Below, one piece after another: positions 9,680 through 36,495 of a stretch of 36,495 bases of DNA. The notes under the pieces are model-generated. The model searched no databases and was not told where the DNA came from. It saw only the letters and a program-made list of their open reading frames with translations. Position 1 is the first letter of the stretch. Each line of letters opens with the position of its first letter. Origin of the DNA: a virus; IMG/VR virus record IMGVR_UViG_3300042475_002678, positions 1-36,495 of that record; one strand, given 5' to 3'. The translations under genes and the position numbers were made by a program.

Positions 9680-10119
9680 TCGTCGGTGTCTTCGGTCGGG
9701 TCGTAGTCGTCAGCCTTGGGCTTCTTGCGGCCCACGGCGCGGAGTTGGTCGGCCATGTCAGTCGCGGTGGTTTCGTGGTCGTCGCCGAAGTCGCGCTTGA
9801 CCTTGCCGTGCTTCTCTGCAAACTTCATGGCTTCGTTGAGCAGGCCACGGTCGGCTTCTTTGTAGAGCGGCTTGCCGTCCTCGTACAGCGGCTTGCCGTC
9901 CGCGCCGATGCACTGGATGCCACGCTCAACCATGATGACCAGTTTCTTGCCGATCATCGGCACCAGCATCGCCGCGTACTTCTGCGGGTCTTCGACGCGG
10001 AGTTCGTCGAGACACGCGCGGATGTTGGCCATCTCGCCAGCCTGTGCGGGCGAGGCAACGCTTGCGGCGAGTCGGTCGAGGGACGCGAGAGCCTTGTCGA
10101 TGATGGCGATGTGGTTCAT
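9676..10119 (-). CDS. Probable terminase small subunit
   Basis: A 147-residue protein directly upstream of, and overlapping, the large terminase gene. It has a helical N-terminus, a central section with the tandem DGKPLY repeat, then RGLLNEAMKFAEKHGKV, which resembles the C-terminal helix of T7-type small terminases that contacts the motor, and an acidic tail. The role would be recognition of concatemer ends. The assignment relies on position and this helix; no classic helix-turn-helix is obvious. Confidence 0.65.
   Translation of the reverse strand: MNHIAIIDKALASLDRLAASVASPAQAGEMANIRACLDELRVEDPQKYAAMLVPMIGKKLVIMVERGIQCIGADGKPLYEDGKPLYKEADRGLLNEAMKFAEKHGKVKRDFGDDHETTATDMADQLRAVGRKKPKADDYDPTEDTDE
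9866..9901 (+). repeat. 21-bp-period tandem repeat inside the small terminase gene
   Basis: AGCGGCTTGCCGTCC is present at 9866-9880 and 9887-9901. On the coding strand it gives two consecutive DGKPLY units, a recent-looking in-frame duplication. Confidence 0.7.
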
Positions 10120-13100
10120 TCTGTTTCGCTGCGCGATGGCAGGTTGAGTTCTTCACGGATGGCACGAAGCGAACCCATGTAGTTGGGCAGGAACAGGCCC
10201 TTCGTGATGGTGTTGTAGTTGCGTTCCGAGAAGTCGTAGTCGGACTCGATCATCGGTCGCAGCACAGCACCCGGAAGGGCCGTGAGGTTCTTGAGCGAGT
10301 CGGCGGCGGCGAAGTTCGCAAGCACGCCGCTTGCCCCGGTCGCCATGTACGTTTGGCGGTACTGCGAGAACGGCGCGTCGTAGCCGAACGCGGACGCACC
10401 GGCATCCACAACAGTCGGCATGATGCCTGCCATTGCGGATCGGGCGAACGCGGCCTTGGCGATGTTCTCGGTGGCCAGGCGTTCGTTGAGGAAGTCTTCG
10501 CGGTCCTGCATGGTCGCGGCGGCGATGACGTTGGCCACGACGTACTGCAACATGCCCGTGGCAGCGGCGGATGCCGTGGTAAGCGCGGCGTGACGGTCGG
10601 CCATGCGAGCGTTGAAGCCGAGGTAGTTGCCAGTCGCACGGAGGGCGAACCGACGCAGTTGCAGGAACAACTTGCCGTACCACTTGGCCGCGAACGTCGG
10701 CATAGAGGACGCATCGCCAAAGTTGGTCAGGCGTCGAGTGGCAATGTTTACGGCCTCGCGAAACGCAGCGGCGGCGGCTTGGTTGCTCCACGCCCGTTCG
10801 TTGGGCATGACCACTCGGCCCGTCTTGTCCTTGGTGCCGAATCGCCGGATCATCGCGCCAATCTCGGTTTGCAGTTCGGGCGTGAGATTCAGGGCTTTCA
10901 GGCGTGCGTTTGAGAGCGGGCCAGTGCGTCCTACTGCAAAGTCAACCCAGTGGCCCACCGCGCCCGCGTACACCGCGATTTCCTGCGAGTTGCCAATCGG
11001 ACCTTCGCCCGACATCCACTTGTTGCCGAAGTGTGTGGCCTTCTCAGCAGCCGTCGTGACAGGCCCAAACTTCTTGGCATACCCATCCGCCGCGTCCATG
11101 ACGTGACCGGGGATGCGGCTTGCGTAGCCGCGACCGAACCCGGCCAACTGCGCGTCGGCGATGATCTCTACGTCCGACAGTTGACCCGACATGGCCGACG
11201 TTGAAAGTTCGTCGATGACCGGGAACAACTTACGCATGAACGGGACGCTGACTTCCGGCTGGACCAAGTGGTTCAGCGATTCGGTTATCTGCATCGCCCC
11301 GGCGCGTGGCGTCGCCATAACCTGCATGTAGACGCCAGCGTTGATGACCTGAGTTGACCCCATCAGGGCGTAGTCGAGTTCATCCTTGAGGTCGTGGACG
11401 GCGTACCCAGCCAACTGGCGGAACAGGGCTTCGGCTCGCGACTTGCTAGACGCGCCGGGTGCGTACCACTTGGCCGACGCCTGCTGAAACTCCGCAAGCG
11501 TCTTGGGCATGTCCTCGTTGAACAACGCCTTGTAGACGCGGCCAGCCTCTTCGAGCGCGGACCCGCTGTGCATCTCGTGCGAGTAGCGGGCGTAGAGAAC
11601 GCGAGGATCGTTCTCAAGCAACTGCTCGATGGTGTACGTCTTGTCGTTGATGACTTCGCTGTACGACTCGTCGAGCGGCGTACGGGCGCGAAGGCGAGGA
11701 TTAGCCGCCTCGTCACGCCCGAAGATGCTGCGGATGATGTGCTTCTTGTCGTCGCTCGCGAGGTCGGCAATCTCGTCCAGCACGCTTTCGGCGTCGGCTC
11801 GCGACATGCCAGCGTGATAGACGCGGCCCGACTTGGTGCCGCCGTACTGGATTGCCGCCTCTGCCATGCGGCGGGCAACCTTGTCGTCCTTGGCCGCGAC
11901 CTGATCGGGCGTCAAGTCCGGGAACAGTTCGAGTTGGTTCTGCCCCACGCGGGATTGCCGCATGTCCGACAGGATCGCGTTCTTGTAGAACGTCACCGCC
12001 CCATCGTGGCCGAGTTCCTTGACCAGCCGATCCAGTTCGTCCCGCTTCTGGATGCGAGGCACGTACCCAGCCACATTGCCAGCCTCTTCGCGCTTGATGC
12101 CAGCGTGACGGAGGTAGTAGTCGAGGTTCGTGTCAAGCCCGCGACGCATGGCGTTGGCAGCTTCGACCACGCCGGGAGCGGCCCCAGTCGTGAAGCCACG
12201 CGCGGCCCGCGTCACCTGAGCCATCCACTCGTCCTGCTTGGGCATGGCTACGCCCGACTGCTTGGCCTTCTTCGCTTCGACGCGGTACATGGCGGCAAGG
12301 CCGGTGTTGAAGTTGCCGGTGTCGTTGCTGACCGCCGCGCCGACCTGCTCGATCAGGCCGCGATTCACCGACCCGTCTTTGTGCGGGACGTAGTTCGTGC
12401 CGGTCGCGTTGGCGAACCAAGTGCCCCTCGCGTCGATCGCGTCCTTGCTCGCCCACGCCGTCATCGACATGGTGATGGGAACCTTGGTGTCCTTGTCCTT
12501 GATGTAGAGCGTCGTGGTCGCGGGCGACAGGCTCACACGCGAGGCATCCATGTCGCCCAACTTGAAGTCTGGACGAAGGAGCGGGTTGACGAAGGTGGGC
12601 GATTGGGTTTGACCTTCGCCACCGGCGCGGATGGCACTGGAAAGAGCGGACAGGTTGGCTTGCGACGCCGGTATGGACTGTGCAAGCCTAGCGTTTCTCG
12701 CGTTGAGCCACGCCTGAAAATCAACCCTGTCGTCTTGGCTTGGGATGCCAAGCGACGCCCTAGCGGGATAAACGATATCCGACAAGATTTCGTTGCGGCT
12801 TTTGCCGGGAACGTCGTTGTCTGCAAGAAGACGAATTGCAACTTGTTGCCCAGTTAGTCCTTGTGCCGACAAGTCTTCGATCTTCTGGGTGATACCAAGA
12901 CGGTCTGCTGTGTTTCTTCCGTTGCGAATCGACTCGCGAACCCAATCTGCGGCTTTGATCGTGTCGGTGATGTTTGGCAATTGGGGCGAAGCGGGCTGTG
13001 GTGCGGACGGGGCAAGGTCTGGATAGTCGGCCAGCACGCTCGCAGGAACCCGCTTGCCCGCTTGAACCGCCACTTCAACCGCTTCTCTGTGTGCGTCTCG

Positions 13101-15086
13101 CCCGAATCCAATCGACTCTGGCAGTGCGACGATTGAAGAGAATCCGCTTTCGGCAACATCCTTCACCCGAACCGCAGAAACGCCGTTGTCTCGCATCCAC
13201 GCTGACAACTTTGTGTCAAACTCATGTGCAAAGCCAAGGTCTTTCCCGTACTTCTTGATGTTGTCTGGAACCCAATCTGGAACATCCTTTGCGGTCAGGT
13301 CGAGCGTGTTGCCGTAAATCTTGGTCTGAATGACCCGAGGCGCAGAGTCTTTGCGGTACAAGCGAACATCGCCGTCCGTAAGAATGTCGTCGTTGAGTTC
13401 ATAGACAGACTTAGCCTTCACGATGCGACCAGCGAGTTCAGGGTCCGCATACCACAACACTGCACCCTTTTCCATCTGCGAGTTGATCGCCTTCCGCATG
13501 TCCCCAAGAGTGCTTGGCTTACCAGCGTCCAGGGCCTGCTCCGACCACTTGTCGTAACTAATCTGCTTGTACCCAGTGGCGTTTGCGAACGTGTCTGCAA
13601 CAACCGGGTCTTCCGTGAAGTAGAACCTGTCAGACCGAGTTCGCTCTTTGCCGAAACGATCAAGCGCGGCGGCGTCGAACCTGTCGAACTGCCTGTTGGT
13701 TCCGTGGTACACAGCAAGCCCGGTCGCCTCGTACTCGTCGCGGGTCATCTGCCATGGCTGCTTGCCTCCAACCGGAATCGGCTCTGGGTCTGGGGCGTTC
13801 CGACCTGCAACTCCGGCTGCTACCGTCGCGTCTTCGCGAGGCACGGGCGTTGCAGCACTCCGGGCGGCGGCTGCTTCATTTACTAGCCGCTGAGCGTCTT
13901 CTGCGGTCTTGATCTTGCCTTCTGCGTACGCCCGAGTAACAAGTTGGGCATCCCACGACTGCGTTGAAAACGGCGTCGCCACCTTTCCATTTGCCAGCCG
14001 TTGTAGCATCGCGTCGTAGTAGTTTAGGGTAATAGCCCCACCCATGTTGCCAAAGGCACTTGCGATGCCGGGGCTGGACGCGCCTTGTGCAGCGGGCGTA
14101 ACCGCCGCCGGAACATCCGACCGCCCAGCCCGCATCTCAGCCCACTGCTGGGGCGGAACGTGCGAAACAGCGGCAACGAAGTCGTCGGCGTTGAACACCG
14201 TGGCGGTTGGGATCGTGCCGTTGGTGTAGAAGTTCGCGCGGCCAGTCTTCCAGTCGTTTGCAATGCGAACGGTGGCAGCGTCAAAAGCGGCGGCTTCTCT
14301 GGTCTTGGCGACCGCGCCGAACGCGCCCCCCATAATGCCAGACACCAACGCGGCGGTGCCAATGTCGTAGATATCTGCGTCTTCGCGCCATGCCGCGCCC
14401 AAGGCCCCGGACGGCGCGTACGCCCCAAAGCCCGTGGCCGCACGAACGGCGGTGTTGGCACCCATCGAGTTCGCCCGCGCGATGCCGAAGCCGAACAGGA
14501 AGTCGCCAATGGCCCCGGTCACGGCGTCGGATGCGTCAAGGTCGGGCGACAGTTCGGCCCGCAACCCTTCCGTCACAAGGCTCAGGCTGGCGTTGATCGC
14601 ACCCGACGTTGCCCACGCGCCAATCCCGGTGCGCCCCGCGACGCCGATGGGACCAACGGCCATAGTAAGGATGCTGACGGGATCGGTAATCATCGCCCCG
14701 ACCGTCGCCATCGTCCCGCCGTACCCGGCCTCGCGGAGAATCTTGCGGCGGCGGCTCGCGTTGACCGCTTCGGTAAGCAGGTAGTTGTAGTGGTCGCCGC
14801 TTCGGGCCTCAAGGATGTTCAACTTGAGGTCGGGGTCAACGTGCTTGGTCTGCTGCTCCCACGCGGAAAGGTCGGGGTTCCACGAAGGATCATCTTTGAA
14901 ACCTTGGCTGACGAGTTCTCGCCCGGCCATGTCGGACAACCAATACTGTTCCTTGGCCGCAAGCAGCGTTTCGGACGAGAAGAAGTTGCCGATGGTCGAG
15001 AGCGGAGTGGGCGGCGTATATCCAGCGACAGTCTCTTCCGTTGGCACCATGTTTTCGATGCGTGCCGGGCGGGGGAATACGCTCAC
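10116..15086 (-). CDS. Giant gp16-like internal virion (ejection) protein with embedded ADP-ribosyltransferase-like domain
   Basis: A 1656-residue protein in the place of T7 gp16, a core protein ejected to form the DNA channel across the envelope. The N-terminal part (about 100-260) holds several Ala/Gly-rich hydrophobic segments. Residues about 455-665 look like a polyvalent-protein ADP-ribosyltransferase: AVYHGTNRQFDRFD (His461), FYFTEDP (Tyr489) and IVALPESIG (Glu657) give an H-Y-E triad. The triad is followed by GKRVPASVLADYPDL, a linker typical of polyvalent proteins. The C-terminal half is long and mostly helical, as in podoviral ejection proteins; I see no transglycosylase motif. It starts with GTG preceded by GGAGG and overlaps the gp15-like stop. 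Confidence 0.85.
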   Translation of the reverse strand: MSVFPRPARIENMVPTEETVAGYTPPTPLSTIGNFFSSETLLAAKEQYWLSDMAGRELVSQGFKDDPSWNPDLSAWEQQTKHVDPDLKLNILEARSGDHYNYLLTEAVNASRRRKILREAGYGGTMATVGAMITDPVSILTMAVGPIGVAGRTGIGAWATSGAINASLSLVTEGLRAELSPDLDASDAVTGAIGDFLFGFGIARANSMGANTAVRAATGFGAYAPSGALGAAWREDADIYDIGTAALVSGIMGGAFGAVAKTREAAAFDAATVRIANDWKTGRANFYTNGTIPTATVFNADDFVAAVSHVPPQQWAEMRAGRSDVPAAVTPAAQGASSPGIASAFGNMGGAITLNYYDAMLQRLANGKVATPFSTQSWDAQLVTRAYAEGKIKTAEDAQRLVNEAAAARSAATPVPREDATVAAGVAGRNAPDPEPIPVGGKQPWQMTRDEYEATGLAVYHGTNRQFDRFDAAALDRFGKERTRSDRFYFTEDPVVADTFANATGYKQISYDKWSEQALDAGKPSTLGDMRKAINSQMEKGAVLWYADPELAGRIVKAKSVYELNDDILTDGDVRLYRKDSAPRVIQTKIYGNTLDLTAKDVPDWVPDNIKKYGKDLGFAHEFDTKLSAWMRDNGVSAVRVKDVAESGFSSIVALPESIGFGRDAHREAVEVAVQAGKRVPASVLADYPDLAPSAPQPASPQLPNITDTIKAADWVRESIRNGRNTADRLGITQKIEDLSAQGLTGQQVAIRLLADNDVPGKSRNEILSDIVYPARASLGIPSQDDRVDFQAWLNARNARLAQSIPASQANLSALSSAIRAGGEGQTQSPTFVNPLLRPDFKLGDMDASRVSLSPATTTLYIKDKDTKVPITMSMTAWASKDAIDARGTWFANATGTNYVPHKDGSVNRGLIEQVGAAVSNDTGNFNTGLAAMYRVEAKKAKQSGVAMPKQDEWMAQVTRAARGFTTGAAPGVVEAANAMRRGLDTNLDYYLRHAGIKREEAGNVAGYVPRIQKRDELDRLVKELGHDGAVTFYKNAILSDMRQSRVGQNQLELFPDLTPDQVAAKDDKVARRMAEAAIQYGGTKSGRVYHAGMSRADAESVLDEIADLASDDKKHIIRSIFGRDEAANPRLRARTPLDESYSEVINDKTYTIEQLLENDPRVLYARYSHEMHSGSALEEAGRVYKALFNEDMPKTLAEFQQASAKWYAPGASSKSRAEALFRQLAGYAVHDLKDELDYALMGSTQVINAGVYMQVMATPRAGAMQITESLNHLVQPEVSVPFMRKLFPVIDELSTSAMSGQLSDVEIIADAQLAGFGRGYASRIPGHVMDAADGYAKKFGPVTTAAEKATHFGNKWMSGEGPIGNSQEIAVYAGAVGHWVDFAVGRTGPLSNARLKALNLTPELQTEIGAMIRRFGTKDKTGRVVMPNERAWSNQAAAAAFREAVNIATRRLTNFGDASSMPTFAAKWYGKLFLQLRRFALRATGNYLGFNARMADRHAALTTASAAATGMLQYVVANVIAAATMQDREDFLNERLATENIAKAAFARSAMAGIMPTVVDAGASAFGYDAPFSQYRQTYMATGASGVLANFAAADSLKNLTALPGAVLRPMIESDYDFSERNYNTITKGLFLPNYMGSLRAIREELNLPSRSETE

Positions 15087-17263
15087 TCAAGTCCTCCGTA
15101 TCTCACCGTACTCAGATTGCGCATGGCGTTGTCGATTGCCTTGGCTTCGGCTCGGCGTTTCATCGCTTCGCTAGTTGCGTTGGACCGCATGGCCGTCTTG
15201 AGGTCTTCCGCCGTGAACGTCATCGTCACGGCCCCGTCGTCGTGGCGGTAGCGGAGAACGTCGCCGGTGCGGTTGTCAACGAACGACAGCATCCGGCTCT
15301 GCGGGTCTTGCGTCAGGCGAATGTCGCCCTTGCCGATCTTCTTGTTGTTCCAGACGTAGGCGGTGTCGTCCTTGATCTGTTCGTGCAGGATGCCAGCCAA
15401 CGCGCTGCCCGCGTCCTCAAACGAGTATTCCTGCCCGAATCCAGGGTCTGGAACCTCGTCGCGGAAGAACGTGTAGTGGCCGTTGACGATCCTGCTCTTG
15501 GCCTTCACCACTTCGGCGGCGCGCTTCACGGCATCGACGGGCCGAAGGTTCGGGTTCCGCATCATCAGGATGTTGGCAAACTCAGACACGTTATCCTTCG
15601 CAACCTCGCTGTCTTCGGCCCGAGTGAACGGAATCCACGGCGCACGGTCCAGAAGTTTCTCGGCTTGGTTACGAACGGCCTCGCGCTCCGCCTCCTGCAT
15701 CGGGCGGGGCTTGGCGGCGAAGCGTGCTGCCTGAATCAACGCCTGCTCTTCGGTCATCTGCTGACCGGCGAGCGGGTTGGATTCGAGAATGTCAATCGCG
15801 GCTTCGTACACCGCCATGTCGCCGTCAAGTTCTCCCAATTGCCCATCGGTGCCAGCGGCCCGAAGTTCTCGGTACATGCGGAAGTTGCCAACCGCAGACT
15901 GGATCGTGGGCCGATTGCGTTCGTCGGTCGGGGCGAGTGCCGCAGCCTTGAGAGCGCGGGCGTCAATCCGCATCATCGACGACTCTTCGCTCATCGGGTA
16001 GCCGTTCTGCTGCGACCAACGCGAGTACGCAACCACTTGAGATTCGCCGCCGGGCCGGTTCTCTGGCCTCGCGTAGTAGGCGCGGGCGGCTGTCTTCATC
16101 GTGCGTTCGACTTCGGCGGCGTCGATCTTCGCAACCACTTGCCCGTTGTCCACCACGCGCAGCCCATCGGCTTCCAGAACGTCGGCCTTGCCCAAGCCCG
16201 GCTGCATGGTCATTGCGAAGAACGAACCAAGCGTTGACTGGCGAGCGTTGGCGACGCGAGCGGCCTGTACCGCCTTGGCCTGCTCGCCGAAGTACCGATC
16301 CGATGCGTTGTTGAGCGTCGCAATCGGGCCGTCGAAGTAGCGGGCCAGATCGGGGTTGGCCTTCATCTGATCCCGCAGGCGTTCGCGTTGGAGCAGGATG
16401 TCTTCGATCCGGCCACCCGTCAGGGCTTCGGACGTATTGAGAGCGGCGGTCGTGACTTGCTGAGACAGAATCTCGGAACGCTGACGCTCTTGGGCACCAG
16501 CGGCAACGTCTTTGAGTTTCTGTAGTTGCCCGCCAAGCAACGGCTCAAGACGGGGAGCAATTCGCTCAAGCCCGGCAACATCGCCCGACTCTGCTAGCGT
16601 CTTGGCTACAGGAAGGTACAGTTCCAGCGTTGCCCGATCCGGCTGGCCCGGAAACAGGTTGCGTTCGCCCTCGGCAAGAGCCGCAGGATCAGTCAGGCCT
16701 GCGCTCTGGTAGCGAGCAACTGCAAAGCCGCGCTCTTCTTCCGTCACGCGGTCAAGTTGACGCACGACGTTCTGCGCGTACGCCTGGGTGATTGCAGACG
16801 AATAAGCCTCGCGAGCAGCGGGGGAGTCTGGGAAGAGCCTAGACGCCTCATCCTCGCCAAACAGAATGGCCGTGTTGCGGATCGTTTCGGCGTCCGCGCT
16901 TGGCGGGATCATCACATCGCCGCGCTCGACTTCGCCTTCCAGCGTCACGGCTCGCAGCCTTGCGGCCTCGGTCGCCTCAGAGCGTTGCAGGGCTTCGGTG
17001 CGAGCAAGGGTCTGCTCGTACTGGGCCTGATCCTCAGCCGCCCTTGCTGCCGCCTCCCTCTCCTGCCCAATCCTGATCCGCTCCGCGCCAGCCATGAAGT
17101 CCACGACTGCCGACGTTGCCCTCAGCGATTCGCCGACGATGCCAGCGACCTGATTGGCCGTTTGGTCGGGGATGACGGGAATTGGAGCAACCCCCGGCGC
17201 GGCGAGCGATCTGCTCACGCCAGAACCGCGCAGTGGGTCGATGGAGCGTCCGTATCTTGACAT
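15083..17263 (-). CDS. gp15-like internal virion protein (ejection channel)
   Basis: A 726-residue protein, close to the 747 of T7 gp15, and immediately upstream of the gp16-like gene as in T7. It is highly helical, with long charged Ala/Glu/Arg-rich stretches (REAAARAAEDQAQYEQ and similar, about 60-110) and no membrane segment, as expected for a tubular channel subunit. Family assignment depends on position, size and composition. Its stop overlaps the next start, so stoichiometry is probably translationally controlled. Confidence 0.78.
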   Translation of the reverse strand: MSRYGRSIDPLRGSGVSRSLAAPGVAPIPVIPDQTANQVAGIVGESLRATSAVVDFMAGAERIRIGQEREAAARAAEDQAQYEQTLARTEALQRSEATEAARLRAVTLEGEVERGDVMIPPSADAETIRNTAILFGEDEASRLFPDSPAAREAYSSAITQAYAQNVVRQLDRVTEEERGFAVARYQSAGLTDPAALAEGERNLFPGQPDRATLELYLPVAKTLAESGDVAGLERIAPRLEPLLGGQLQKLKDVAAGAQERQRSEILSQQVTTAALNTSEALTGGRIEDILLQRERLRDQMKANPDLARYFDGPIATLNNASDRYFGEQAKAVQAARVANARQSTLGSFFAMTMQPGLGKADVLEADGLRVVDNGQVVAKIDAAEVERTMKTAARAYYARPENRPGGESQVVAYSRWSQQNGYPMSEESSMMRIDARALKAAALAPTDERNRPTIQSAVGNFRMYRELRAAGTDGQLGELDGDMAVYEAAIDILESNPLAGQQMTEEQALIQAARFAAKPRPMQEAEREAVRNQAEKLLDRAPWIPFTRAEDSEVAKDNVSEFANILMMRNPNLRPVDAVKRAAEVVKAKSRIVNGHYTFFRDEVPDPGFGQEYSFEDAGSALAGILHEQIKDDTAYVWNNKKIGKGDIRLTQDPQSRMLSFVDNRTGDVLRYRHDDGAVTMTFTAEDLKTAMRSNATSEAMKRRAEAKAIDNAMRNLSTVRYGGLE

Positions 17264-17265
17264 GG

Positions 17266-17796
17266 TTAGACCATCAGACAGACCGAGGCGTTCAGGGTGG
17301 CAGCAGGCGTGCCGCCGTCACAAAGCAACTGGGCGAGGATGTTGGCACCGGCCACGTTCTTGATGATGACAGCACCGGCACCGTTTGCCGTGTTGTTGTA
17401 GACGCCGATGGAGCCATAGACGCTCTCGAACGTGGTGCGGAATGCGGGCGTCGTCATGGTCAGCGTGTCGGCGACGAAAACCGAGGAACTGAGCCACGGG
17501 AACGTGTGCGTCAGGGTGCCGAGCGTGATGCTGACGGCACCGAGATACAGGCCCACGTTGTCGGGCGTCGCAACCCAAAGCCGCATCGTGCCAGTTTCGT
17601 TCGCGGCGTCTGTGCCGTACGGGATGATGCGGATTCCTTGGTAGTCGCAGGCGGGCTGCTGGCTCATGCGAATCAGCGCGGAGTTGATCGGCAAGTCAGA
17701 TGGGATTGAAATGTCGGTCGCACCAAGGTCGCCCGTTGCGGTTGTCGAGTTGACCGTCAGCAACGGCGATGGTCCAAGCGTTTTGAGAATGAGCAT
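17266..17796 (-). CDS. Beta-rich virion protein candidate
   Basis: A 176-residue protein rich in Thr, Ser, Ala and Val with many short beta strands and few charges, typical of virion decoration or tail appendage domains. The pattern DVSI..TLG.TLTHTFPWLSSSVFVADTLTMTT suggests a jelly-roll-like sandwich. It sits between the esterase candidate and the gp15-like gene. No specific family recognised. Confidence 0.65.
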   Translation of the reverse strand: MLILKTLGPSPLLTVNSTTATGDLGATDISIPSDLPINSALIRMSQQPACDYQGIRIIPYGTDAANETGTMRLWVATPDNVGLYLGAVSITLGTLTHTFPWLSSSVFVADTLTMTTPAFRTTFESVYGSIGVYNNTANGAGAVIIKNVAGANILAQLLCDGGTPAATLNASVCLMV

Positions 17797-17805
17797 GGTT
17801 GTTCC

Positions 17806-19188
17806 TTATGGGCGGGCGCGGATTCGCCCGCTGCCCAGAGTGTCGTCTTGCATTGAACTTTGCAGGTACATATCAACTTCAACGGTCGGGAAATACAAAG
17901 CCCCGGAGTCGCTGGGGTGGATCGCGCCGGGCGTGTCGCCCACCGTGTCCAAGTAGGTTGCCGCCCAAGTGTTGACGGGGCCAAGGCGGTCGCGCACTTC
18001 AAGCCCGAGCGGGGTGTACGCGACTTTGTTGTGAAGCGAGTTGTTGTTGTTGGCGATGGTGCGGAACACGTCATCCATCTCATCGAACCGCACCTGCTCA
18101 GCGACGGTGTAACCGGCCACGTTGCCCGTGGTGTCCCACTGCAATACCAGTTCGATGAGGATGTCAGACGATCCCTTGCCAACGCGAGTCAGAGAGTCGC
18201 GGATGCGGGCAATCGTTGTCAAGACTTGCGTAGTCAAAACACCCTGATCGCCGGGCGCGTACTTGTTCTGGCCAAGCATGATACTGATTTTGCCCGACTT
18301 GCCGCCCGTGGAGTAGTCACCCTCGATGGGCGTCATCGAAAAGATGGCGTCCATTGTTGCGTCGGTGTACCAGCCTTGGTTGCCCGCGCCGCCCGGAGCG
18401 ACCGCCGCCATGTGGTTGTCCCAACCAGCACCACCCCAACCCATCGAAACCTCGCCGTAGCGGGTGGCGGAAAGCGTGTTGTGACGCACCGTGCGGTACA
18501 GCATCATCGAACACTTGCCGCTTTCCGAAGTGCCGCCACCGAGCGACTGGCGGAACATTGAAATATCAGATGACCCAGTGCCCGTCGAAGACGCCGGGGT
18601 TTCGTAGAACGTGTGCGTGCCCTTCGTGCCCGACGAATCGTTGATGGCCGACGTGCTGCTGTCGTAGATGTTCGTGCCAGCGCATCCGGTCGCAATGACT
18701 GACATGCCGGGCACGCCGTCCGCGCCCGCGCTGATTCGCAGTTCGCCGAACCTGATACTTTGGTTGGTGAGCCAGTCCGTGCCCCAGAATGACTGGCGAA
18801 TCGTGTTGCGGATGATTGGGGCGAAGTCGCTGTTGGCTCCAAACTTCAATATGGTCGCGCCTGCTGCAAATGCGTTTAGGGACGACGGGATTGCCCCAGC
18901 CCCAGAACCCATCTCAAAGTCCGCGACCGTGAAAGACGTTCCTCCGACAGACAGCGATTGTGTGCTGGCTGGACCGGAAGCGTTGAACCAGCCAAACGCG
19001 GCCAGGTCTCCACCGGCCGCAAAGCACGGGTGAGCAAAGAACCCCCACGGCCCGTATCTGGTGTCCTTCTTGCGCCCGATGGGAAGACGCTTGGTAACGC
19101 CCTCAACGCCTTGCGAGTCGGTCATTCGGACGACAGGGCGTTGCATACGGGCGTACAACTCGTCGCCCTTGACACAAGTTCTAGGCAT
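17806..19188 (-). CDS. SGNH/GDSL-type esterase candidate, receptor-modifying virion protein
   Basis: A 460-residue protein. Motifs fit the SGNH hydrolase order: VVRMTDSQGV near residue 19-28, where TDS replaces the usual GDS (Ser25 nucleophile); a Gly-rich block II candidate near 250; ISIMLGQNKY (Asn308) as block III; and GAIHPSDSG (His424) as block V. The Asp normally three residues before His is not in place; Asp418 lies six before. Such enzymes deacetylate host polysaccharides on phage tails. The gene starts TGATG-coupled to the tailspike gene, so the two probably work on the same surface glycan. Confidence 0.62.
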   Translation of the reverse strand: MPRTCVKGDELYARMQRPVVRMTDSQGVEGVTKRLPIGRKKDTRYGPWGFFAHPCFAAGGDLAAFGWFNASGPASTQSLSVGGTSFTVADFEMGSGAGAIPSSLNAFAAGATILKFGANSDFAPIIRNTIRQSFWGTDWLTNQSIRFGELRISAGADGVPGMSVIATGCAGTNIYDSSTSAINDSSGTKGTHTFYETPASSTGTGSSDISMFRQSLGGGTSESGKCSMMLYRTVRHNTLSATRYGEVSMGWGGAGWDNHMAAVAPGGAGNQGWYTDATMDAIFSMTPIEGDYSTGGKSGKISIMLGQNKYAPGDQGVLTTQVLTTIARIRDSLTRVGKGSSDILIELVLQWDTTGNVAGYTVAEQVRFDEMDDVFRTIANNNNSLHNKVAYTPLGLEVRDRLGPVNTWAATYLDTVGDTPGAIHPSDSGALYFPTVEVDMYLQSSMQDDTLGSGRIRARP

Positions 19189-20492
19189 CAGTTCTCCGTG
19201 GCTGTGGTGTTGCCGGTGATGACGATTGACCCACGCGGCTGCTCGATGTGAATAGCCACCTTGGGGTTTCTGTGGATGTTGCCGAAGACGAACGCCCCGT
19301 CACCACGCGACACGCGGATGTGTTCACCCTGCGCCGCGCCCGGAACCGATGCCCAACCATTGAACGTGTTATGGGCAATCGCACCACGCCACAGCACGCC
19401 CGGAGGCTGCATGGCGTGCCCGCCGCTGATACCGATGGGGCAGTCGCTCACTTCGTTCTGAGAGGCGTAGGTTCGACCAGCACGCATCTGAAGGCCCGCG
19501 TGGGCGACATTGTGGATGCGGTTGTAGCGGGCCACGAACGGCAATTGCCCGAACGTGCCGGGCGTAGCGACGATGTAGACGCCCTGCGAGAACTTGCTGT
19601 TCTCGTCGCGCCCGCCGCTGGGGGTCAGGCCAAGGTTCGACAGTTCGTTCTCCTCGAACAGCATTCCCTCGACGCGGACGACATAGCCGCCCCCGCCGTG
19701 TGAGCCGTTCATTGAGAACGTGTTGTGGACCGTGTTGCGACGGAACACCACGTTCATAAGCCCGCCATCTACCACGCCATCGAAGATAAACGCGGAGTTG
19801 CCGCCCTCGAAGTGGCAGTCCTCGACGACAACGCCGATGGTGCTGGCGTAGACGATGATGCCGCAGTGGGGCTTGCCGCCGTAGTTGAGCGGGTTGGGCG
19901 TGAAGTCCAGGCCGATGACCCACAGGTTGCCAGCGAACCCATCACCCTGCACCCGCATCGTCCCGTCTTTGTCAGGCCGGGTGAACTTGGGGCGTGGGCC
20001 TTCGCCGTACGCCTTCAACACCATCGGGCGCGTGCTGCTTGCACCGCCCTTGTCCCACGTCCCGTATTCGCCGACGATCCGCTCATCCCAGACGCCACCA
20101 CGCTTGAACGCGATGTGGTCGGCCCGGCCATTGCGGGCGAGTGCGTAGGCGCGCGCGACGGTGCGTACGGGTGCATCCTGCTGCAAGCCCGCGTTGGCGT
20201 CGTCGCCGTCGTTGGAGACATAGATCGTCCGCTCGGCTGGCGGGATGATCGTGGCACCGTTGTCGTCCTGCTTGGGTGCCCAAGGCATGTCGGCTGGCAG
20301 GCCGAACCGGACGCGCTTCTCGTACGCCTCAAGGTCGGCGGGGTCGAAGAACGCCCCGTCGCGGTTGATGTCAATGCTGTCGTTGTCGCCCGTGCTGGAT
20401 TGGCCTTCCGAGAAGACCGCGTACAGGTCGTCAAGGTCAATGCCATTCACCAGCCCGTCGTTGTTGAAGTCAGGGTCGGCAAAGTGGTTCAT
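19188..20492 (-). CDS. Tailspike: dockerin-type calcium domain plus right-handed beta-helix
   Basis: A 434-residue protein. The N-terminus (about 6-60) holds two EF-hand-like loops, DFNNDGLVNGID and DINRDGAFFDPAD, each with Asp/Asn at positions 1, 3, 5 and an acid at 12 or later, the dockerin type I pattern frequent in planctomycete proteins. From about residue 90, YVSNDGDDANAG leads into a long series of short beta coils (GLDFTPNP, IIVYASTIGVVVEDCHFEGG, NTVHNTFSMNGSHGG), a pectate-lyase-like beta-helix. The ATG at 20492 has AGGA six bases upstream; GTG at 20510 is possible. Probable role: binding and possibly cleaving a host surface polysaccharide. Confidence 0.82.
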   Translation of the reverse strand: MNHFADPDFNNDGLVNGIDLDDLYAVFSEGQSSTGDNDSIDINRDGAFFDPADLEAYEKRVRFGLPADMPWAPKQDDNGATIIPPAERTIYVSNDGDDANAGLQQDAPVRTVARAYALARNGRADHIAFKRGGVWDERIVGEYGTWDKGGASSTRPMVLKAYGEGPRPKFTRPDKDGTMRVQGDGFAGNLWVIGLDFTPNPLNYGGKPHCGIIVYASTIGVVVEDCHFEGGNSAFIFDGVVDGGLMNVVFRRNTVHNTFSMNGSHGGGGYVVRVEGMLFEENELSNLGLTPSGGRDENSKFSQGVYIVATPGTFGQLPFVARYNRIHNVAHAGLQMRAGRTYASQNEVSDCPIGISGGHAMQPPGVLWRGAIAHNTFNGWASVPGAAQGEHIRVSRGDGAFVFGNIHRNPKVAIHIEQPRGSIVITGNTTATEN

Positions 20493-20506
20493 GTTTGATC
20501 CTGTTT

Positions 20507-21046
20507 TCACGCGCTGACAGCAAAGGCGTTCTCGGCACCTTCCATCGCGCGGCGAAGGGCCTGACGAACAGTGACGCCGGAACGAACCTCGAAGGTGTCC
20601 AGCAACGCGAACGAGAAGTCGTCGGCGGACGGGATCGAACCGATGTTCAGGTTCGCCCCGATGTTGCCACGACCAATCATGCTGACGGTCGCCGCAACGG
20701 ACCCGGCAATGTCAACGTCCACTTCCTTGAGGCCCGTCAGGTCGCCATCCGAAGACGCCGCTGCGGTCGTGGTCGTGGCCGTGTCGCCAAGCCCACTCAG
20801 GGCCACGTCAGAACTGGCCGATGCGGTCGTGCGGTTCGTGGACGCGAGGCCACCGCTCGTCTGGGCGGGCACGTAGGCAACACTGTTGATGTAGCCAATC
20901 GGCGCGCTTGCGTGCTTAGAAAAGCCTCCACCGTGGACGCGAGGCAGGGCGTTGCCCATGATCCACGCATCTCGGAATCCAACTCCCGCGTAGGAGCCGG
21001 TAAGCCGAGCCTTGATGGAGATGTTGGAGCCGTTTCGGATAAGCAT
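20507..21046 (-). CDS. Structural protein candidate
   Basis: A 179-residue protein starting MLIRNGSNISIKARLTGSYA. The middle is an Ala/Ser/Thr-rich linker (ASSDVALSGLGDTATTTTA) flanked by beta segments, and the C-terminus ends in a helix (TVRQALRRAMEGAENA). It begins three bases after the stop of the preceding gene. The low-charge, low-complexity composition fits a virion appendage. Not recognised. Confidence 0.65.
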   Translation of the reverse strand: MLIRNGSNISIKARLTGSYAGVGFRDAWIMGNALPRVHGGGFSKHASAPIGYINSVAYVPAQTSGGLASTNRTTASASSDVALSGLGDTATTTTAAASSDGDLTGLKEVDVDIAGSVAATVSMIGRGNIGANLNIGSIPSADDFSFALLDTFEVRSGVTVRQALRRAMEGAENAFAVSA

Positions 21047-21048
21047 GT

Positions 21049-21900
21049 TTAGTCCCAAGCCATGTCTGCGTAGCCCATGAGCAGGCTCGAAGTGGCAAGC
21101 GCGCCGCCCACTTGGATCAGGAACCCGAGGCAAGCCCCGTCTTCGACGCGGGGCAGGGATGGCAACTGGTACACAAAGTCGCGTTCAGACGCGGTGTTGA
21201 TCGCAAGCAGCGGGATCGTCGCCAGTGGCTTGCAGAGGATCAGTGAGGCCGTGCCCGTCGTGCCCGTCGCAAGGGTGTACGACTGCACCGATCGAATGCC
21301 GTTGTCGCCAGAGGCCAAGCGGACGAACGGAGAGCCGTCAGTCTGAAAGCAGGTGGAGAGCGGAGCCGAGTTAGCCGGGGATGTGTGGGCCGCAGCGACG
21401 TTTGAGCCGGTGCCGCCTTGGTCGGTGTAGGTGAAGGTCAGGGCGGGAGCAGCAGCACCCAGAGCCGAGTTGACCGTCACAATCGCCTGCACGCCTTCGC
21501 CGCTGGTGTAGCGAGGCAGGCCAACGCCGTTGGTCAACGTCGTGGGCGTACCCGTCACCACCAGCGACGGGTACATAAGCAGGAAGTCGCACAGGATCAG
21601 CGTGGCCGGAACCACGGTCGCAGTGGGGGACCACGCGGCAAGGTTCAGTAGGTGGCGAGTGTCAGGCGACACGTTGGACCCGATGGGCAACGCGCCAGCC
21701 GTGGATGAAGTCAGTTGGACCGCCGTGCCAGCCGTGCCGCCCAGCGACATCGCCGTGGGCACACCATTCCATTGCAGCGTGTCGTGCCAGCGACCAGCGG
21801 CGGAAGTGGCCGCGTTGTTGCTGGTTTTCTGGAAGACCGTCTTGAGGTTCTGCCCGCCCGTGATAGCAGCCACCATCGCATCGACCGAAGCGAATCCCAT
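21049..21900 (-). CDS. Structural protein candidate (beta-rich, 283 residues)
   Basis: The protein starts MGFASVDAMVAAITGGQN and is dominated by Thr/Ala/Gly/Leu beta segments such as ATLILCDFLLMYPSLVVTG and GTASLILCKPLATIPLLA, with almost no charge. Similar uncharged proteins accompany tail fibres in podoviruses and siphoviruses. Its start overlaps the preceding stop (TAATG). Likely a neck, fibre or decoration protein, but the family is not identified. Confidence 0.68.
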   Translation of the reverse strand: MGFASVDAMVAAITGGQNLKTVFQKTSNNAATSAAGRWHDTLQWNGVPTAMSLGGTAGTAVQLTSSTAGALPIGSNVSPDTRHLLNLAAWSPTATVVPATLILCDFLLMYPSLVVTGTPTTLTNGVGLPRYTSGEGVQAIVTVNSALGAAAPALTFTYTDQGGTGSNVAAAHTSPANSAPLSTCFQTDGSPFVRLASGDNGIRSVQSYTLATGTTGTASLILCKPLATIPLLAINTASERDFVYQLPSLPRVEDGACLGFLIQVGGALATSSLLMGYADMAWD

Positions 21901-22307
21901 TAGTCCTCCACAATCTGCAACGCACCAGCAACGGCGCGCGGCGTAATCAGGTTTGACACGGCCAACGAAGCGTTGAGCGTGCCCTTATACAGCAGCCGGC
22001 CCGTGCCCGACGAGGCTGTGCCAATGCCGAAGTGAGTCAGAGTTTCAGACCCGCCCGTGCATTGAGGCCAAGTCACTTCCGCCGTGTTGCTGGCGGTGTT
22101 GCCGCTCACGGTCCAGCCAGCCCCGTCGCGCGACACAAGCACGCGCGCGTAACTGGTGTACGCCGCCTCGTTGGTCGTCTGGTTTCCAGCCTCGCCGGGG
22201 TCCGAAGTGTGAAGCGACACGTACAGGTTCGACGTTGACCACGAAAAGGTGGTGCCGTTGAACACGTACAGCAGCACGTCGTTCTCTAGGTTGTTGCCCT
22301 TGCTCAT
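21900..22307 (-). CDS. Conserved small phage tail-region protein
   Basis: A 135-residue protein. The strand YVSLHTSDPGEAGNQTTNEAAY followed by YARVLVSRDGAGWTVSG and a C-terminal LTHFGIGTASSGTG.LLYKG pattern is one I recognise from many phage genomes, where it is annotated hypothetical or tail-associated. It is a compact beta domain about 130 residues long. ATGA overlap with the fibre gene indicates joint expression. Confidence 0.75.
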   Translation of the reverse strand: MSKGNNLENDVLLYVFNGTTFSWSTSNLYVSLHTSDPGEAGNQTTNEAAYTSYARVLVSRDGAGWTVSGNTASNTAEVTWPQCTGGSETLTHFGIGTASSGTGRLLYKGTLNASLAVSNLITPRAVAGALQIVED

Positions 22308-22672
22308 AGTGTCGTCTGGTTGATCTCAACCAGCGTGTCTCCTGAGTAAACGAAGTCTTTGCGGGTCGTCGTCGCGCCTTGCACGAAGTCGATCCGAGTG
22401 AGTTTGCCGCTTGTGTATGTGAACGTCTTGTACGAACCGTCGTCGTAGTCGATGCGAGTCAGAACGCCCGACGTGTACGTGAACTCGGGGCCAGCGGGCG
22501 ACGAACCGCCCGACGATCCCGCCGCGCCCTGCGGACCCTGCGGCCCTTGCGGACCAACGCCGCCCGATCCCTCGTTGGCCCGCCTGACCAACTCGTACAA
22601 CGCCGTTGCCTGCGGATCGTTCCCGCGACGTGTTCGCGGAAGGGCGATGGGCGCGGCGCGTCTGTTGCTCAT
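22304..22672 (-). CDS. Small collagen-like fibre protein with beta repeats
   Basis: A 122-residue protein. Residues 37-50 hold a GPQGPQGPQGA collagen-like Gly-x-y run, expected to form a trimeric stalk. From residue 64 follow three related units: FTYTSGVLTRIDY, FTYTSGKLTRIDF and FVYSGDTLVEI, spaced about 20 residues apart, which resemble beta-hairpin repeats of phage fibre tips. The ATG at 22672 overlaps the XhlA-like stop (ATGA); a longer reading from 22765 would extend antisense-like Arg-rich sequence and is rejected. Probably a short head or tail fibre. Confidence 0.75.
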   Translation of the reverse strand: MSNRRAAPIALPRTRRGNDPQATALYELVRRANEGSGGVGPQGPQGPQGAAGSSGGSSPAGPEFTYTSGVLTRIDYDDGSYKTFTYTSGKLTRIDFVQGATTTRKDFVYSGDTLVEINQTTL

Positions 22673-22944
22673 GGGGTTGGGGGCGGCAACTTGCCGGTCG
22701 AAAGCATCTTCCAGCCGGTCGCGACCAACGCGAAGAATGCGGCGGTAACGGAGCCAACCAGCCACTTCACGGCGGATCGCTGGGTTTCCTGCAACTCTTT
22801 GACGTGTGCTTCCAGTGTTGGTACGCGATGGTTCAAGCCCTTCTCAGGCTCGCCGTTGCCGGTCAAGTGTTCCTTGACTTGGCGAACGTCGGTCTGAATC
22901 TGCTGCATGAGAAACATCGCATCACGCAGAGTCGGCTCGTTCAC
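22669..22944 (-). CDS. XhlA-like membrane protein, possible lysis accessory
   Basis: A 91-residue protein: a charged coiled-coil-like N-terminus (LMQQIQTDVRQVKEHL, then TLEAHVKELQETQR), a single membrane helix (about 59-79, WLVGSVTAAFFALVATGW) and a short Pro-rich tail. This is the layout of XhlA/haemolysin-type proteins found beside holins. It starts with GTG overlapping the lipoprotein stop (GTGA), with GAGG seven bases upstream. It may partner the two-helix holin candidate four genes upstream. Assignment by topology only. Confidence 0.62.
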   Translation of the reverse strand: MNEPTLRDAMFLMQQIQTDVRQVKEHLTGNGEPEKGLNHRVPTLEAHVKELQETQRSAVKWLVGSVTAAFFALVATGWKMLSTGKLPPPTP

Positions 22945-23210
22945 TGCACTACCTCATCCGGCTGAGCCGCGTTAGCGACAACTTCCTTGAGCATCTGCCC
23001 CGTGCGGATGCGCTTGGCCTTCTCGGTGTCGGACAGGCTCGCGTCAGCCTGCACGTAGCCCGCGTGTTCCTCAGTGAGAACATCCACGGCGGGCTTGATG
23101 TTGGTCGCCGAGATGAGTCCCTGCGCGGAGCAGGCCCCCATCACAACCGGAATCAACACCACGCCCATCCAAAGGGCAAATGTCGCAGCGTTTTCGATCT
23201 TCTTCTTCAT
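22941..23210 (-). CDS. Small lipoprotein, outer-membrane spanin candidate
   Basis: An 89-residue protein with MKKK, a hydrophobic stretch (about 9-24) and a lipobox-like VMGAC, so Cys27 would be the acylated residue. The mature part of about 62 residues is charged and helical, not Pro-rich as in classical Rz1. Within a lysis block it could act as an o-spanin or single-molecule spanin component. Host-derived lipoprotein cargo is the alternative. ATGA overlap with the preceding gene. Confidence 0.6.
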   Translation of the reverse strand: MKKKIENAATFALWMGVVLIPVVMGACSAQGLISATNIKPAVDVLTEEHAGYVQADASLSDTEKAKRIRTGQMLKEVVANAAQPDEVVQ

Positions 23211-23464
23211 GCCATTGCTCCCACGGCCATGCTCACGCCAAGCCGCACAAGGCGACGAACGGCGTTGCGAGAACGGCGGTTCAGTTCGATACGGTGCTTC
23301 TCTGCCAGCAGCATCAGTTGTGCGTCAAGGTGCTTGTCGCTGGCACCAGCCATACCAACCGCGTCTTCCATGATCGCCTCCGCGTATCGCTGGATGTCTT
23401 CGCTGGCACCAGTCAGGTAGTCGCCAATGGCGTCCTGTAAGTACCCCGCATACTTCTTGTTCAT
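23207..23464 (-). CDS. Small helical hypothetical protein
   Basis: An 85-residue, nearly all-helical protein (QDAIGDYLTGASEDIQRYAE, then DKHLDAQLMLLAEKHRIEL) ending in a mildly hydrophobic Val/Ala/Met tail. The family is not recognised. Position between the holin candidate and the lipoprotein suggests a lysis or virion accessory role, but the sequence itself does not show this. Confidence 0.65.
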   Translation of the reverse strand: MNKKYAGYLQDAIGDYLTGASEDIQRYAEAIMEDAVGMAGASDKHLDAQLMLLAEKHRIELNRRSRNAVRRLVRLGVSMAVGAMA

Positions 23465-23465
23465 G

Positions 23466-23663
23466 TCAGTCCTTGTGGTCGTGGCGACAGCGCGCGTAGT
23501 CGGTCAGGTCGTCGCCGAACTCTTCTCGCATGTCGCTGGGGCTATACACCCGCTTGGAAACGCACTTGACGCCGTGGTTGCCAGTGCCGGAACCGCCCGG
23601 ATAGAGCGGCCCGCGATGCCCTTCGGGAATGCCCGTGGGCGTGATGGGGGTCGCCTTCTTCAC
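23466..23663 (-). CDS. Small hypothetical protein with GTG start
   Basis: A 65-residue Gly/Pro-rich N-terminus followed by a charged end (SPSDMREEFGDDLTDYARC) and a C-terminal His/Asp/Lys-rich tail. The GTG at 23663 has GGAGG seven bases upstream and overlaps the holin-candidate stop (GTGA), which makes it clearly better than the ATG at 23720. Not recognised. Confidence 0.6.
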   Translation of the reverse strand: MKKATPITPTGIPEGHRGPLYPGGSGTGNHGVKCVSKRVYSPSDMREEFGDDLTDYARCRHDHKD

Positions 23664-23875
23664 TTGCCAGCCTCCGGGGGAGCCTTCTTCCACCACGCCT
23701 TCTTCTCGGCGTAGGACCACGCCAGCGAACCGCCCGACAGGACGATGGCCGCGAGGACCGCAACACCCTTGTCCAACTCACCTTCCACCGCCTGATACCC
23801 GACAGCAGCCGCAATCCAGGCGAGGAACATGCGAACCGCACTCTGCACCAACCCGACAATGAGAGACTTGTCCAT
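23660..23875 (-). CDS. Two-helix membrane protein, holin candidate
   Basis: A 71-residue protein: a short N-terminus, membrane helix 1 (about 8-28), a five-to-eight-residue charged turn (EGELDKG), membrane helix 2 (about 37-54) and a Lys/Trp-rich cytoplasmic tail (EKKAWWKK). This is the class II holin layout, about the size of T7 gp17.5. It directly follows the gp14-like gene. Because the endolysin here carries its own export signal, this holin may need only to depolarise the membrane. Confidence 0.7.
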   Translation of the reverse strand: MDKSLIVGLVQSAVRMFLAWIAAAVGYQAVEGELDKGVAVLAAIVLSGGSLAWSYAEKKAWWKKAPPEAGK

Positions 23876-23883
23876 GAAAACTC

Positions 23884-24456
23884 CTATGAACCGCTCACGC
23901 CTTGCAGCGCGCTCAGTTGATTCAGCCCGGCGAACAGGCCCACGCCCGACGCGAACCCGCCAACACCAGCCTGCACCGCCGCCAGCACAGGGCTTTGCCA
24001 CTGCGACCGGATGCGTGCGGCCTGTGCCTCAAACTGTGACCGCTCGGCCCGACGCTGATTGCGGGCGTTCTCTTCCACGACGTAGGTGTTCACGGCGTTG
24101 TCGCCGACCGCCTGTCGCCGGAAGTCCGACGCGCTGGCACCGCCAGCACCAGCAAACGCGACCGCCACCCGCCCGAGCGTCCGACGAAGGTTCTGGCGTT
24201 CCTTGAACAACTCCAACTGCTCGGCCTCATTGATCTGGCCAATGTTGACGCTTGACGCCAAGGCTAGGTTGTTTAGCGTGCCTTCAATCGCCCGGTTGTT
24301 CTCGAACGCCTGAATACCCGCCAACGCAGCCGTGCCAAAAGCAAGGCCAGCGGCATTGGCAACCCCATAACCACCACCGCCGCTTGGCCCGCCGATTGCT
24401 GGGTTCGACCCGATAGACGGGTCAAACTGTGGAATCGGAATGATGTTTGGATTCAT
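23884..24456 (-). CDS. gp14-like internal virion protein (ejectosome, outer-membrane component)
   Basis: A 190-residue protein, similar in size to T7 gp14 (196), directly after the gp12-like gene as in T7. It has a Pro/Gly-rich start, a hydrophobic helix (about 30-50, VANAAGLAFGTAALAGIQAF), a long charged helical centre with many Arg/Gln/Glu, and a second hydrophobic Gly/Ala segment near the C-terminus. This matches small core proteins that form the outermost part of the ejection channel. ATGA coupling with gp12-like. Confidence 0.78.
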   Translation of the reverse strand: MNPNIIPIPQFDPSIGSNPAIGGPSGGGGYGVANAAGLAFGTAALAGIQAFENNRAIEGTLNNLALASSVNIGQINEAEQLELFKERQNLRRTLGRVAVAFAGAGGASASDFRRQAVGDNAVNTYVVEENARNQRRAERSQFEAQAARIRSQWQSPVLAAVQAGVGGFASGVGLFAGLNQLSALQGVSGS

Positions 24457-36202: not shown

Positions 36203-36495
36203 CTAGTGGAAGGCGTACGTGCTTTCCCGGATGCTCGCCGGGTCAAAGCTCCCGAGTTCTGGGGGTTGCGGCAACTCCAACCCCGGCACCAGTTTGGACC
36301 AATACTCGTGCAGCATGGCCAGCCGGTTCACGCCTTCGTACATCCCCGCCAGTTGGTCGATGGCCTCGCGGTGCATGTACGCGACGTGCCCAGCGTGACA
36401 GTTGTATTGGTCGTGCTGGGCGAACATCTCGTACCCGCGCCGCAGCATCATGCACGCCGTTCGCATCAGGTGTTCTTGATCGAACGAGTGAACCA
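36203..36495 (-). CDS. Hypothetical protein, N-terminus cut by window edge
   Basis: The frame is open to the right edge, giving at least 97 codons. It is helical and rich in His and Met, with GYEMFAQHDQYNCHAGHVAYM and IDQLAGMYEGVNRL. The nearest ATG gives 87 residues, but the true start may lie outside. Not recognised. Confidence 0.65.
   Translation of the reverse strand, partial: VHSFDQEHLMRTACMMLRRGYEMFAQHDQYNCHAGHVAYMHREAIDQLAGMYEGVNRLAMLHEYWSKLVPGLELPQPPELGSFDPASIRESTYAFH

What the first reader, a model, noticed from the sequence alone, without database searches (positions are those of the whole stretch)
13095..13724. ADP-ribosyltransferase-like domain built into a gp16-type ejection protein
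Residues about 455-665 of the 1656-residue protein carry an H-Y-E pattern (YHGT, YFTEDP, ALPESI) spaced as in polyvalent-protein ADP-ribosyltransferases, followed by the GKxVPxxVLADYPDL linker common in those proteins. Gp16-type proteins are injected with the DNA, so the phage may deliver a protein- or nucleic-acid-modifying enzyme before any phage gene is expressed. I know of no described case in a planctomycete T7-like phage.
Basis: partly seen in the sequence, partly recalled or inferred. Interest (0 to 1): 0.8.

Follow-up and report, generated by a model that had tools for sequence, protein, structure and literature searches.

The report
Swappable ART-like domain in phage gp16
A T7-like phage carries, in the middle of the protein it injects to open a channel for its DNA, a foreign domain that resembles ADP-ribosyltransferase enzymes; close relatives carry a different domain there, so the injection protein seems to have an exchangeable cargo slot.

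Summary
The 1656-aa ORF (10116-15086, minus) is a T7 gp16-type ejection protein. Residues 457-510 carry the His-Tyr half of an ART-PolyVal-like domain: Pfam PF18760 E 2.8e-5 (below its curated cut-off), own 23-sequence profile p 4e-11, hhalign probability 95%. The claimed third catalytic residue is not supported. The family is described as H-Y-D, and the aligned position here is Leu655 ([D/N] in relatives); the PARP-glutamate position is Ser650; Glu657 fits neither. AlphaFold was inconclusive for this domain (pLDDT 49), while a relative folded well (pLDDT 86) and matched PARPs. Two relatives whose gp16 is about 90-95% identical have the region replaced by a different short cassette, itself 98.7% identical between them. 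All large inserts found map to T7 gp16 residues 499-518, after the putative membrane segments and inside the cytoplasmic half. Two other phages carry an HExxH domain there. I read it as a cargo slot on the DNA-ejection hub, here holding a divergent ART-like effector. Injected and virion-packaged ARTs are known (T4 Alt, polyvalent proteins), and the solved pre-ejectosome of cyanophage A-4L appears to contain one. New variant of a known kind; activity unproven.

The parts
10116..15086 (-). gp16-type ejection (internal virion) protein, 1656 aa, GTG start
14436..14975 (-). gp16 N-terminal block (residues 38-217), matching phrog_342 positions 226-411; the lysozyme part (positions 1-225) is not matched
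12663..13844 (-). Exchangeable insert, residues 415-808: replaced as a block in L009 (5' junction further upstream, residue ~335, in L008); maps to T7 gp16 residues ~499-518
13731..13757 (-). PWQMTRDEY motif (residues 444-452), shared with large proteins in L004 and L005
13557..13718 (-). ART-PolyVal-like His-Tyr half (residues 457-510): His461 in YHGT, Tyr489 in YFTEDP
13110..13139 (-). Degenerate third ART motif SSIVALPESI (residues 650-659); Ser650 and Leu655 at the two possible acidic positions, Glu657 at a variable one
13014..13091 (-). HREAVEVAVQAGKRVPASVLADYPDL linker (residues 666-691), same type as in the polyvalent protein of L004
10263..12230 (-). gp16 C-terminal core (residues 953-1608), phrog_342 positions 552-1187; counterpart of the T7 gp16-C cytoplasmic hub
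15083..17263 (-). 726-aa ORF directly upstream, in the position of gp15; no Pfam or PHROG match, assigned by gene order only

Best explanation
The gp16-type ejection protein of this T7-like phage has an effector (cargo) slot at the junction between its membrane-proximal N-terminal part and its DNA-binding C-terminal hub. Here the slot holds a horizontally acquired, divergent ART-PolyVal-like domain taken from the pool of phage polyvalent proteins. The few gp16 copies packed in the virion are ejected ahead of the DNA, and the slot ends up on the cytoplasmic face of the inner membrane beside the entering genome. There the domain would ADP-ribosylate, or otherwise act through NAD on, a host protein (for example RNA polymerase or a defence protein) before any phage gene is expressed. 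Host-specific arms races would explain why close relatives carry a different cassette in the same slot. Shown by sequence: the gp16 core, the insert and its position, the cassette exchange, the low G+C, the His-Tyr ART half. Inferred: delivery, cytoplasmic location, enzymatic activity, target.
For: gp16 identity. H-Y half of ART-PolyVal; the family folds as an ART: relative L109 pLDDT 86, best PDB matches PARP4 and PARP1. Insert absent from 38 of 45 gp16-type proteins longer than 1050 aa; all large inserts map to T7 gp16 499-518. L008 and L009 carry another cassette in place of it: 297 nt, 98.7% identical, gp16 flanks 93.3%, unrelated neighbours. L069 and L150 carry related HExxH inserts at the same place. 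Insert G+C 0.54-0.57 against 0.63-0.64 for the gp16 core. Identical copies in two other metagenome contigs argue against an assembly chimera. T7 gp16 residues 411-1118 are assigned to the cytoplasmic toroid (PMC8954989). Precedents: T4 Alt and polyvalent ARTs (PMC5512222); cyanophage A-4L pre-ejectosome protein with an ART-like domain.
Against: Score below the Pfam gathering cut-off (25.3 against 31.2 bits). The third motif is degenerate and the C-half indistinguishable from decoys. AlphaFold of this copy is low-confidence with no PDB match. No close homologue of the domain outside identical copies of this phage. Delivery, topology and activity are not measured. The assignment of gp16-C to the cytoplasm is itself a model.
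Confidence: 0.5

Rival explanations
1. The insert derives from an ART but is catalytically dead: a decoy or an NAD/ADP-ribose-binding or protein-binding module kept at the slot.
For: No acidic residue at either known position of the third motif: Leu655 where relatives have [D/N], Ser650 where PARPs have Glu; C-half degenerate. By my own knowledge, H-Y with a non-acidic third residue is typical of mono-ADP-ribosylating PARPs and occurs also in inactive ones, so the sequence alone does not decide.
Against: His, Tyr and their surroundings are well kept in a domain that is otherwise fast-evolving; other family members also vary at the PARP-Glu position.
Confidence: 0.25
2. The segment is not an ART at all but a variable linker in which the YHGT...YFTEDP pattern arose by chance.
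For: Low-confidence AlphaFold model and no PDB match; score below the curated Pfam cut-off; no full-length match.
Against: Two profile libraries and an independently built profile agree on the same residues; 1 of 5000 shuffles holds the motif pair; adjacent polyvalent-protein module; about 40% identity over 54-57 residues with Ackermannviridae ART-PolyVal virion proteins, though at E 0.09-0.3.
Confidence: 0.1
3. The slot is only a tolerant linker between two gp16 halves; inserts are neutral passengers or physical spacers without delivered function.
For: In pelagiphage-type relatives the C-terminal half is a separate gene beginning near this point, so the junction tolerates interruption; L151 and L152 carry a charged, probably helical insert without enzyme features.
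Against: Inserts in unrelated phages look like enzyme domains (ART-like here, HExxH in L069 and L150), and one cassette is exchanged as a conserved unit at 98.7% identity.
Confidence: 0.15

Closest known systems
ART-PolyVal domains of phage polyvalent proteins (Pfam PF18760; Iyer et al. 2017, PMC5512222)
   Same: YHGT / YF[TS] His-Tyr half, neighbouring PWQMTRDEY and VPxxVLxDYPDL segments, expected delivery with the virion DNA
   Different: Sits inside a T7 gp16 core rather than in a stand-alone giant effector; below the family cut-off; the strand-5 Asp of the H-Y-D site is Leu
T4 Alt, an injected ADP-ribosyltransferase
   Same: Virion-packaged ART injected with the DNA before gene expression (function inferred here)
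   Different: Alt is a separate head protein of the R-S-E clade (PMC5512222), not a domain of the DNA channel
Anabaena phage A-4L ORF27, pre-ejectosome protein (PDB 9k3a chain B, 1717 aa)
   Same: Podovirus ejection-complex protein with YHGT...TYFS...LVINP, matched by fold and by profile
   Different: C-terminal position next to a ParB-like region, no detected gp16 (phrog_342) core, deposited as 'Tail protein'
T7 gp16 (Peptidoglycan transglycosylase gp16, PDB 7eyb)
   Same: Core from the membrane-proximal segment to the cytoplasmic C-terminal hub
   Different: T7 has the N-terminal transglycosylase and no insert at residues 499-518
Ackermannviridae ~150-aa 'putative structural protein' (Salmonella phage moki, L078)
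   Same: ART-PolyVal family (PF18760 E 2e-10), about 40% identity over the His-Tyr half
   Different: Stand-alone virion protein of a myovirus

Membership tests
ART-PolyVal (PF18760 / Tox-ART-HYD2 clade) | Score above the curated gathering cut-off (31.2 bits) | tested here: not met
   22.2-25.3 bits, E 2.6e-4 to 2.8e-5
ART-PolyVal (PF18760 / Tox-ART-HYD2 clade) | Catalytic His in strand 1 | tested here: met
   His461 in YHGT aligned in every row
ART-PolyVal (PF18760 / Tox-ART-HYD2 clade) | Catalytic Tyr in strand 2 | tested here: met
   Tyr489 in YFTEDP
ART-PolyVal (PF18760 / Tox-ART-HYD2 clade) | Asp (or Asn) in strand 5, VF[DN]PxQIK | tested here: not met
   VALPESI: Leu655 at the position; the site is H-Y-D by PMC5512222
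ART-PolyVal (PF18760 / Tox-ART-HYD2 clade) | ART fold | tested here: inconclusive
   This copy: pLDDT 48.6, no PDB match. Relative L109: pLDDT 86, matches PARP4/PARP1
ART-PolyVal (PF18760 / Tox-ART-HYD2 clade) | NAD+-dependent transferase activity | not testable with these tools
   needs biochemistry
T7 gp16-type ejection protein (phrog_342) | C-terminal core | tested here: met
   E 4.9e-57; solved gp16 chains found by its profile
T7 gp16-type ejection protein (phrog_342) | Membrane-proximal Gly-rich block before the hub | tested here: met
   Residues 38-217 match positions 226-411, E 6.5e-19; alignment with T7 385-440
T7 gp16-type ejection protein (phrog_342) | N-terminal lysozyme/transglycosylase (not universal) | tested here: not met
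   Positions 1-225 unmatched; no SLT or lysozyme Pfam hit
Polyvalent proteins (Iyer et al. 2017) | Several unrelated effector domains in one virion-delivered polypeptide | tested here: inconclusive
   One recognisable effector-like domain plus polyvalent-type linker segments; delivery not testable
Alt/VIP2 (R-S-E) ARTs | Arg-Ser-Glu active site | tested here: not met
   His461 and Tyr489 at the first two positions

The most novel reading that the evidence does not exclude
gp16-type ejection proteins have a dedicated, recombination-exchanged effector slot on the cytoplasmic face of the DNA channel, a 'polymorphic cargo' system comparable in logic to polymorphic toxins. Phages load it with enzymes (ART-like, HExxH peptidase-like, others) that act on host machinery or defences at the very point of DNA entry.
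Probability: 0.4. Interest if true: 0.75.

Novelty: new variant of a known kind. Interest (0 to 1): 0.52.

Why it matters
If the slot is real, T7-like phages, long seen as injecting only a channel, also inject enzymes built into it. Each variant would point to an early host target or defence, and the hub offers a defined site for testing delivery of a protein domain into the bacterial cytoplasm in a laboratory phage.

Tried and rejected
AlphaFold of residues 440-676 with 23 relatives: pLDDT 48.6 and no PDB match, not used as evidence; splitting relatives into halves to repair the alignment failed. Significance of the C-terminal half: not above decoys. The alternative cassette of L008/L009 as a mini-ART (LYRGEG...GGDWWTTDIQLARQYGN): no Pfam hit, hhalign probability 1.9%, 2.4 bits; left open. 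Closer homologues of the domain in viral contigs, phages and plasmids: none. The Pfam Glyco_hydro_38 hit in the gp16 core (E 0.006-0.015) is below its cut-off and taken as chance. The planctomycete host could not be tested. No paper found in the library describes an ART inside a gp16-type protein, and none was found for PDB 9k3a.

Full report
What is there. The ORF 10116-15086 on the minus strand encodes 1656 aa. It is a gp16-type ejection protein: residues 953-1608 match phrog_342 'internal virion protein with endolysin domain' at E 4.9e-57, residues 38-217 match an earlier block of the same profile, and a profile of its C-terminal part finds solved gp16-type proteins, T7 gp16 among them at E 1.4e-13. 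The lysozyme part of gp16 is not matched. The phage has a T7-type RNA polymerase: its end lies at 36296-36493, and a longer match is on a 58-kb contig that holds an identical gp16.

The ART claim. Residues 457-503 match PF18760 (ART-PolyVal) with E 2.8e-5 to 2.6e-4, below the curated cut-off. I collected 23 diverse relatives of this family, mostly from viral contigs. A profile built without the window sequence matches residues 458-510 with 25-30 bits (p about 1e-9 to 4e-11), and hhalign gives 94.7%. The matched part holds YHGT (His461) and YFTEDP (Tyr489). The C-terminal half, with the proposed Glu657, is no better than decoys (rank 11 of 586). In the alignment the family motif VF[D/N]PxQIK corresponds to VALPESI: Leu655 replaces the conserved residue and Glu657 lies at a variable position. 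(My relatives all have Asn there because the search pattern asked for it.) The published active site of this clade is His-Tyr-Asp (PMC5512222), not His-Tyr-Glu. By comparison with PARP sequences found by the family profile (PARP motif from my own knowledge), the PARP glutamate would fall on Ser650.

Structure. AlphaFold with 23 relatives gave a poor model for this copy (pLDDT 48.6, pTM 0.35) without a PDB match. As a control I folded the relative L109 with the same set: pLDDT 86.0, pTM 0.83. Its best PDB matches are PARP4 and PARP1 (probability mostly 0.9-0.99, though E-values only 0.003-0.04 and TM-scores 0.44-0.49), and it matches many viral ART-PolyVal proteins. The family therefore has an ART-like fold, and the window copy is placed in it by sequence only.

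The insert and its exchange. In L008 and L009 the gp16 outside the region is about 95% and 90-94% identical in DNA to the window, but residues ~335-808 (L008) or 415-808 (L009) are replaced. Both carry instead a 297-nt cassette that is 98.7% identical between them, while their gp16 flanks are 93.3% identical and the sequences next to the cassette are unrelated. This is what recombination of modules would leave. A 12-base string GCCGCGTCGCCC borders the L009 cassette on both sides, which may be chance in an Ala-Pro-rich linker. The insert has 54-57% G+C against 63-64% in the gp16 core. The window gp16 is found base for base in two other contigs, so an assembly error is unlikely.

The slot. From two scans I took gp16 relatives in viral contigs. 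None carries a YHG[TS] motif. In an alignment of 45 gp16-type proteins over 1050 aa, including T7, seven have inserts of 60 aa or more: the window, L008, L009, L069, L150, L151 and L152. All map to T7 gp16 residues 499-518, after the Gly-rich membrane-proximal block and before the conserved hub. L069 and L150 share an insert with HExxH and a second NLHEF motif (26% identity, E 3e-7), which looks like a zincin peptidase but has no Pfam match. In the pelagiphage type the gp16 C-terminal half is a separate gene starting near this place. According to PMC8954989, T7 gp16 residues 1-156 are the transglycosylase, 157-228 bind gp15, and 411-1118 are modelled as the cytoplasmic ring below the inner membrane. 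The slot would thus face the cytoplasm beside the entering DNA; this is inference from a model of another phage.

Mechanism. T7 carries only a few gp16 copies (annotated as about 3; four in the core and six after ejection). A few tethered enzyme molecules at the entry point would act catalytically and locally, for example on host RNA polymerase, as T4 Alt does, or on defence proteins. This step is inferred, with T4 Alt and polyvalent proteins as models.

Known relatives. Virion-packaged ARTs are established as a theme (PMC5512222, PMC9503650). The fold search with the control model also hit chain B of PDB 9k3a, the pre-ejectosome of cyanophage A4 (probability 0.80, E 0.046). That chain is ORF27 of Anabaena phage A-4L, and my ART profile matches it at residues 1423-1499 with YHGT and YFS (p 2.6e-4). 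An ART-like domain in a podovirus ejection protein therefore probably already has a solved structure, although the deposit calls it 'Tail protein' and I found no paper on it. What differs here is the placement in a T7 gp16 core at an exchangeable site.

Verdict. A divergent ART-PolyVal-like cargo domain in a gp16-type ejection protein is well supported in its His-Tyr half and as a recombining insert, unproven as an enzyme, and not a formal member of PF18760 by the tests made. The exchangeable slot is the more interesting part.

Noticed in passing
L008:3514-3810 and L009:1291-1587: Alternative cassette in the same gp16 slot, 98.7% identical between two phages whose flanks are 93% identical; LYRGEG...GGDWWTTDIQLARQYGN faintly recalls an ART His/Tyr half but no profile supports it.
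   Followed up: partly
L069:856-5688 and L150:2741-7849: gp16-type proteins of 1611 and 1703 aa with a related HExxH...NLHEF insert (zincin-like) in the same slot; no Pfam family matches it.
   Followed up: partly
L201:20116-25269 (Anabaena phage A-4L ORF27, PDB 9k3a chain B): Pre-ejectosome protein deposited as 'Tail protein' appears to contain an ART-PolyVal-like domain at about residues 1421-1595; the preceding region looks ParB-like.
   Followed up: partly
L078:2953-3402: Salmonella phage moki 'putative structural protein' (149 aa) is a stand-alone ART-PolyVal domain (PF18760 E 2e-10), a possible virion ART of Ackermannviridae.
   Followed up: partly
window 10116-17263: No lysozyme or transglycosylase domain is detected in the gp16- or gp15-like proteins, so the phage's entry peptidoglycan hydrolase is unidentified.
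   Followed up: no
window 17266-24456: Several ORFs without PHROG matches and a collagen-like tail fibre ORF lie between the gp12-like tail protein (24453-27419) and the gp15/gp16 genes, an order unlike T7.
   Followed up: no
L004:4293-11423: A polyvalent protein (at least 2377 aa) with InPase, ART-PolyVal and PBECR5 domains and the uninterrupted PWQMTRDEY...VLKDYPDL module whose two halves flank the ART in the window.
   Followed up: partly
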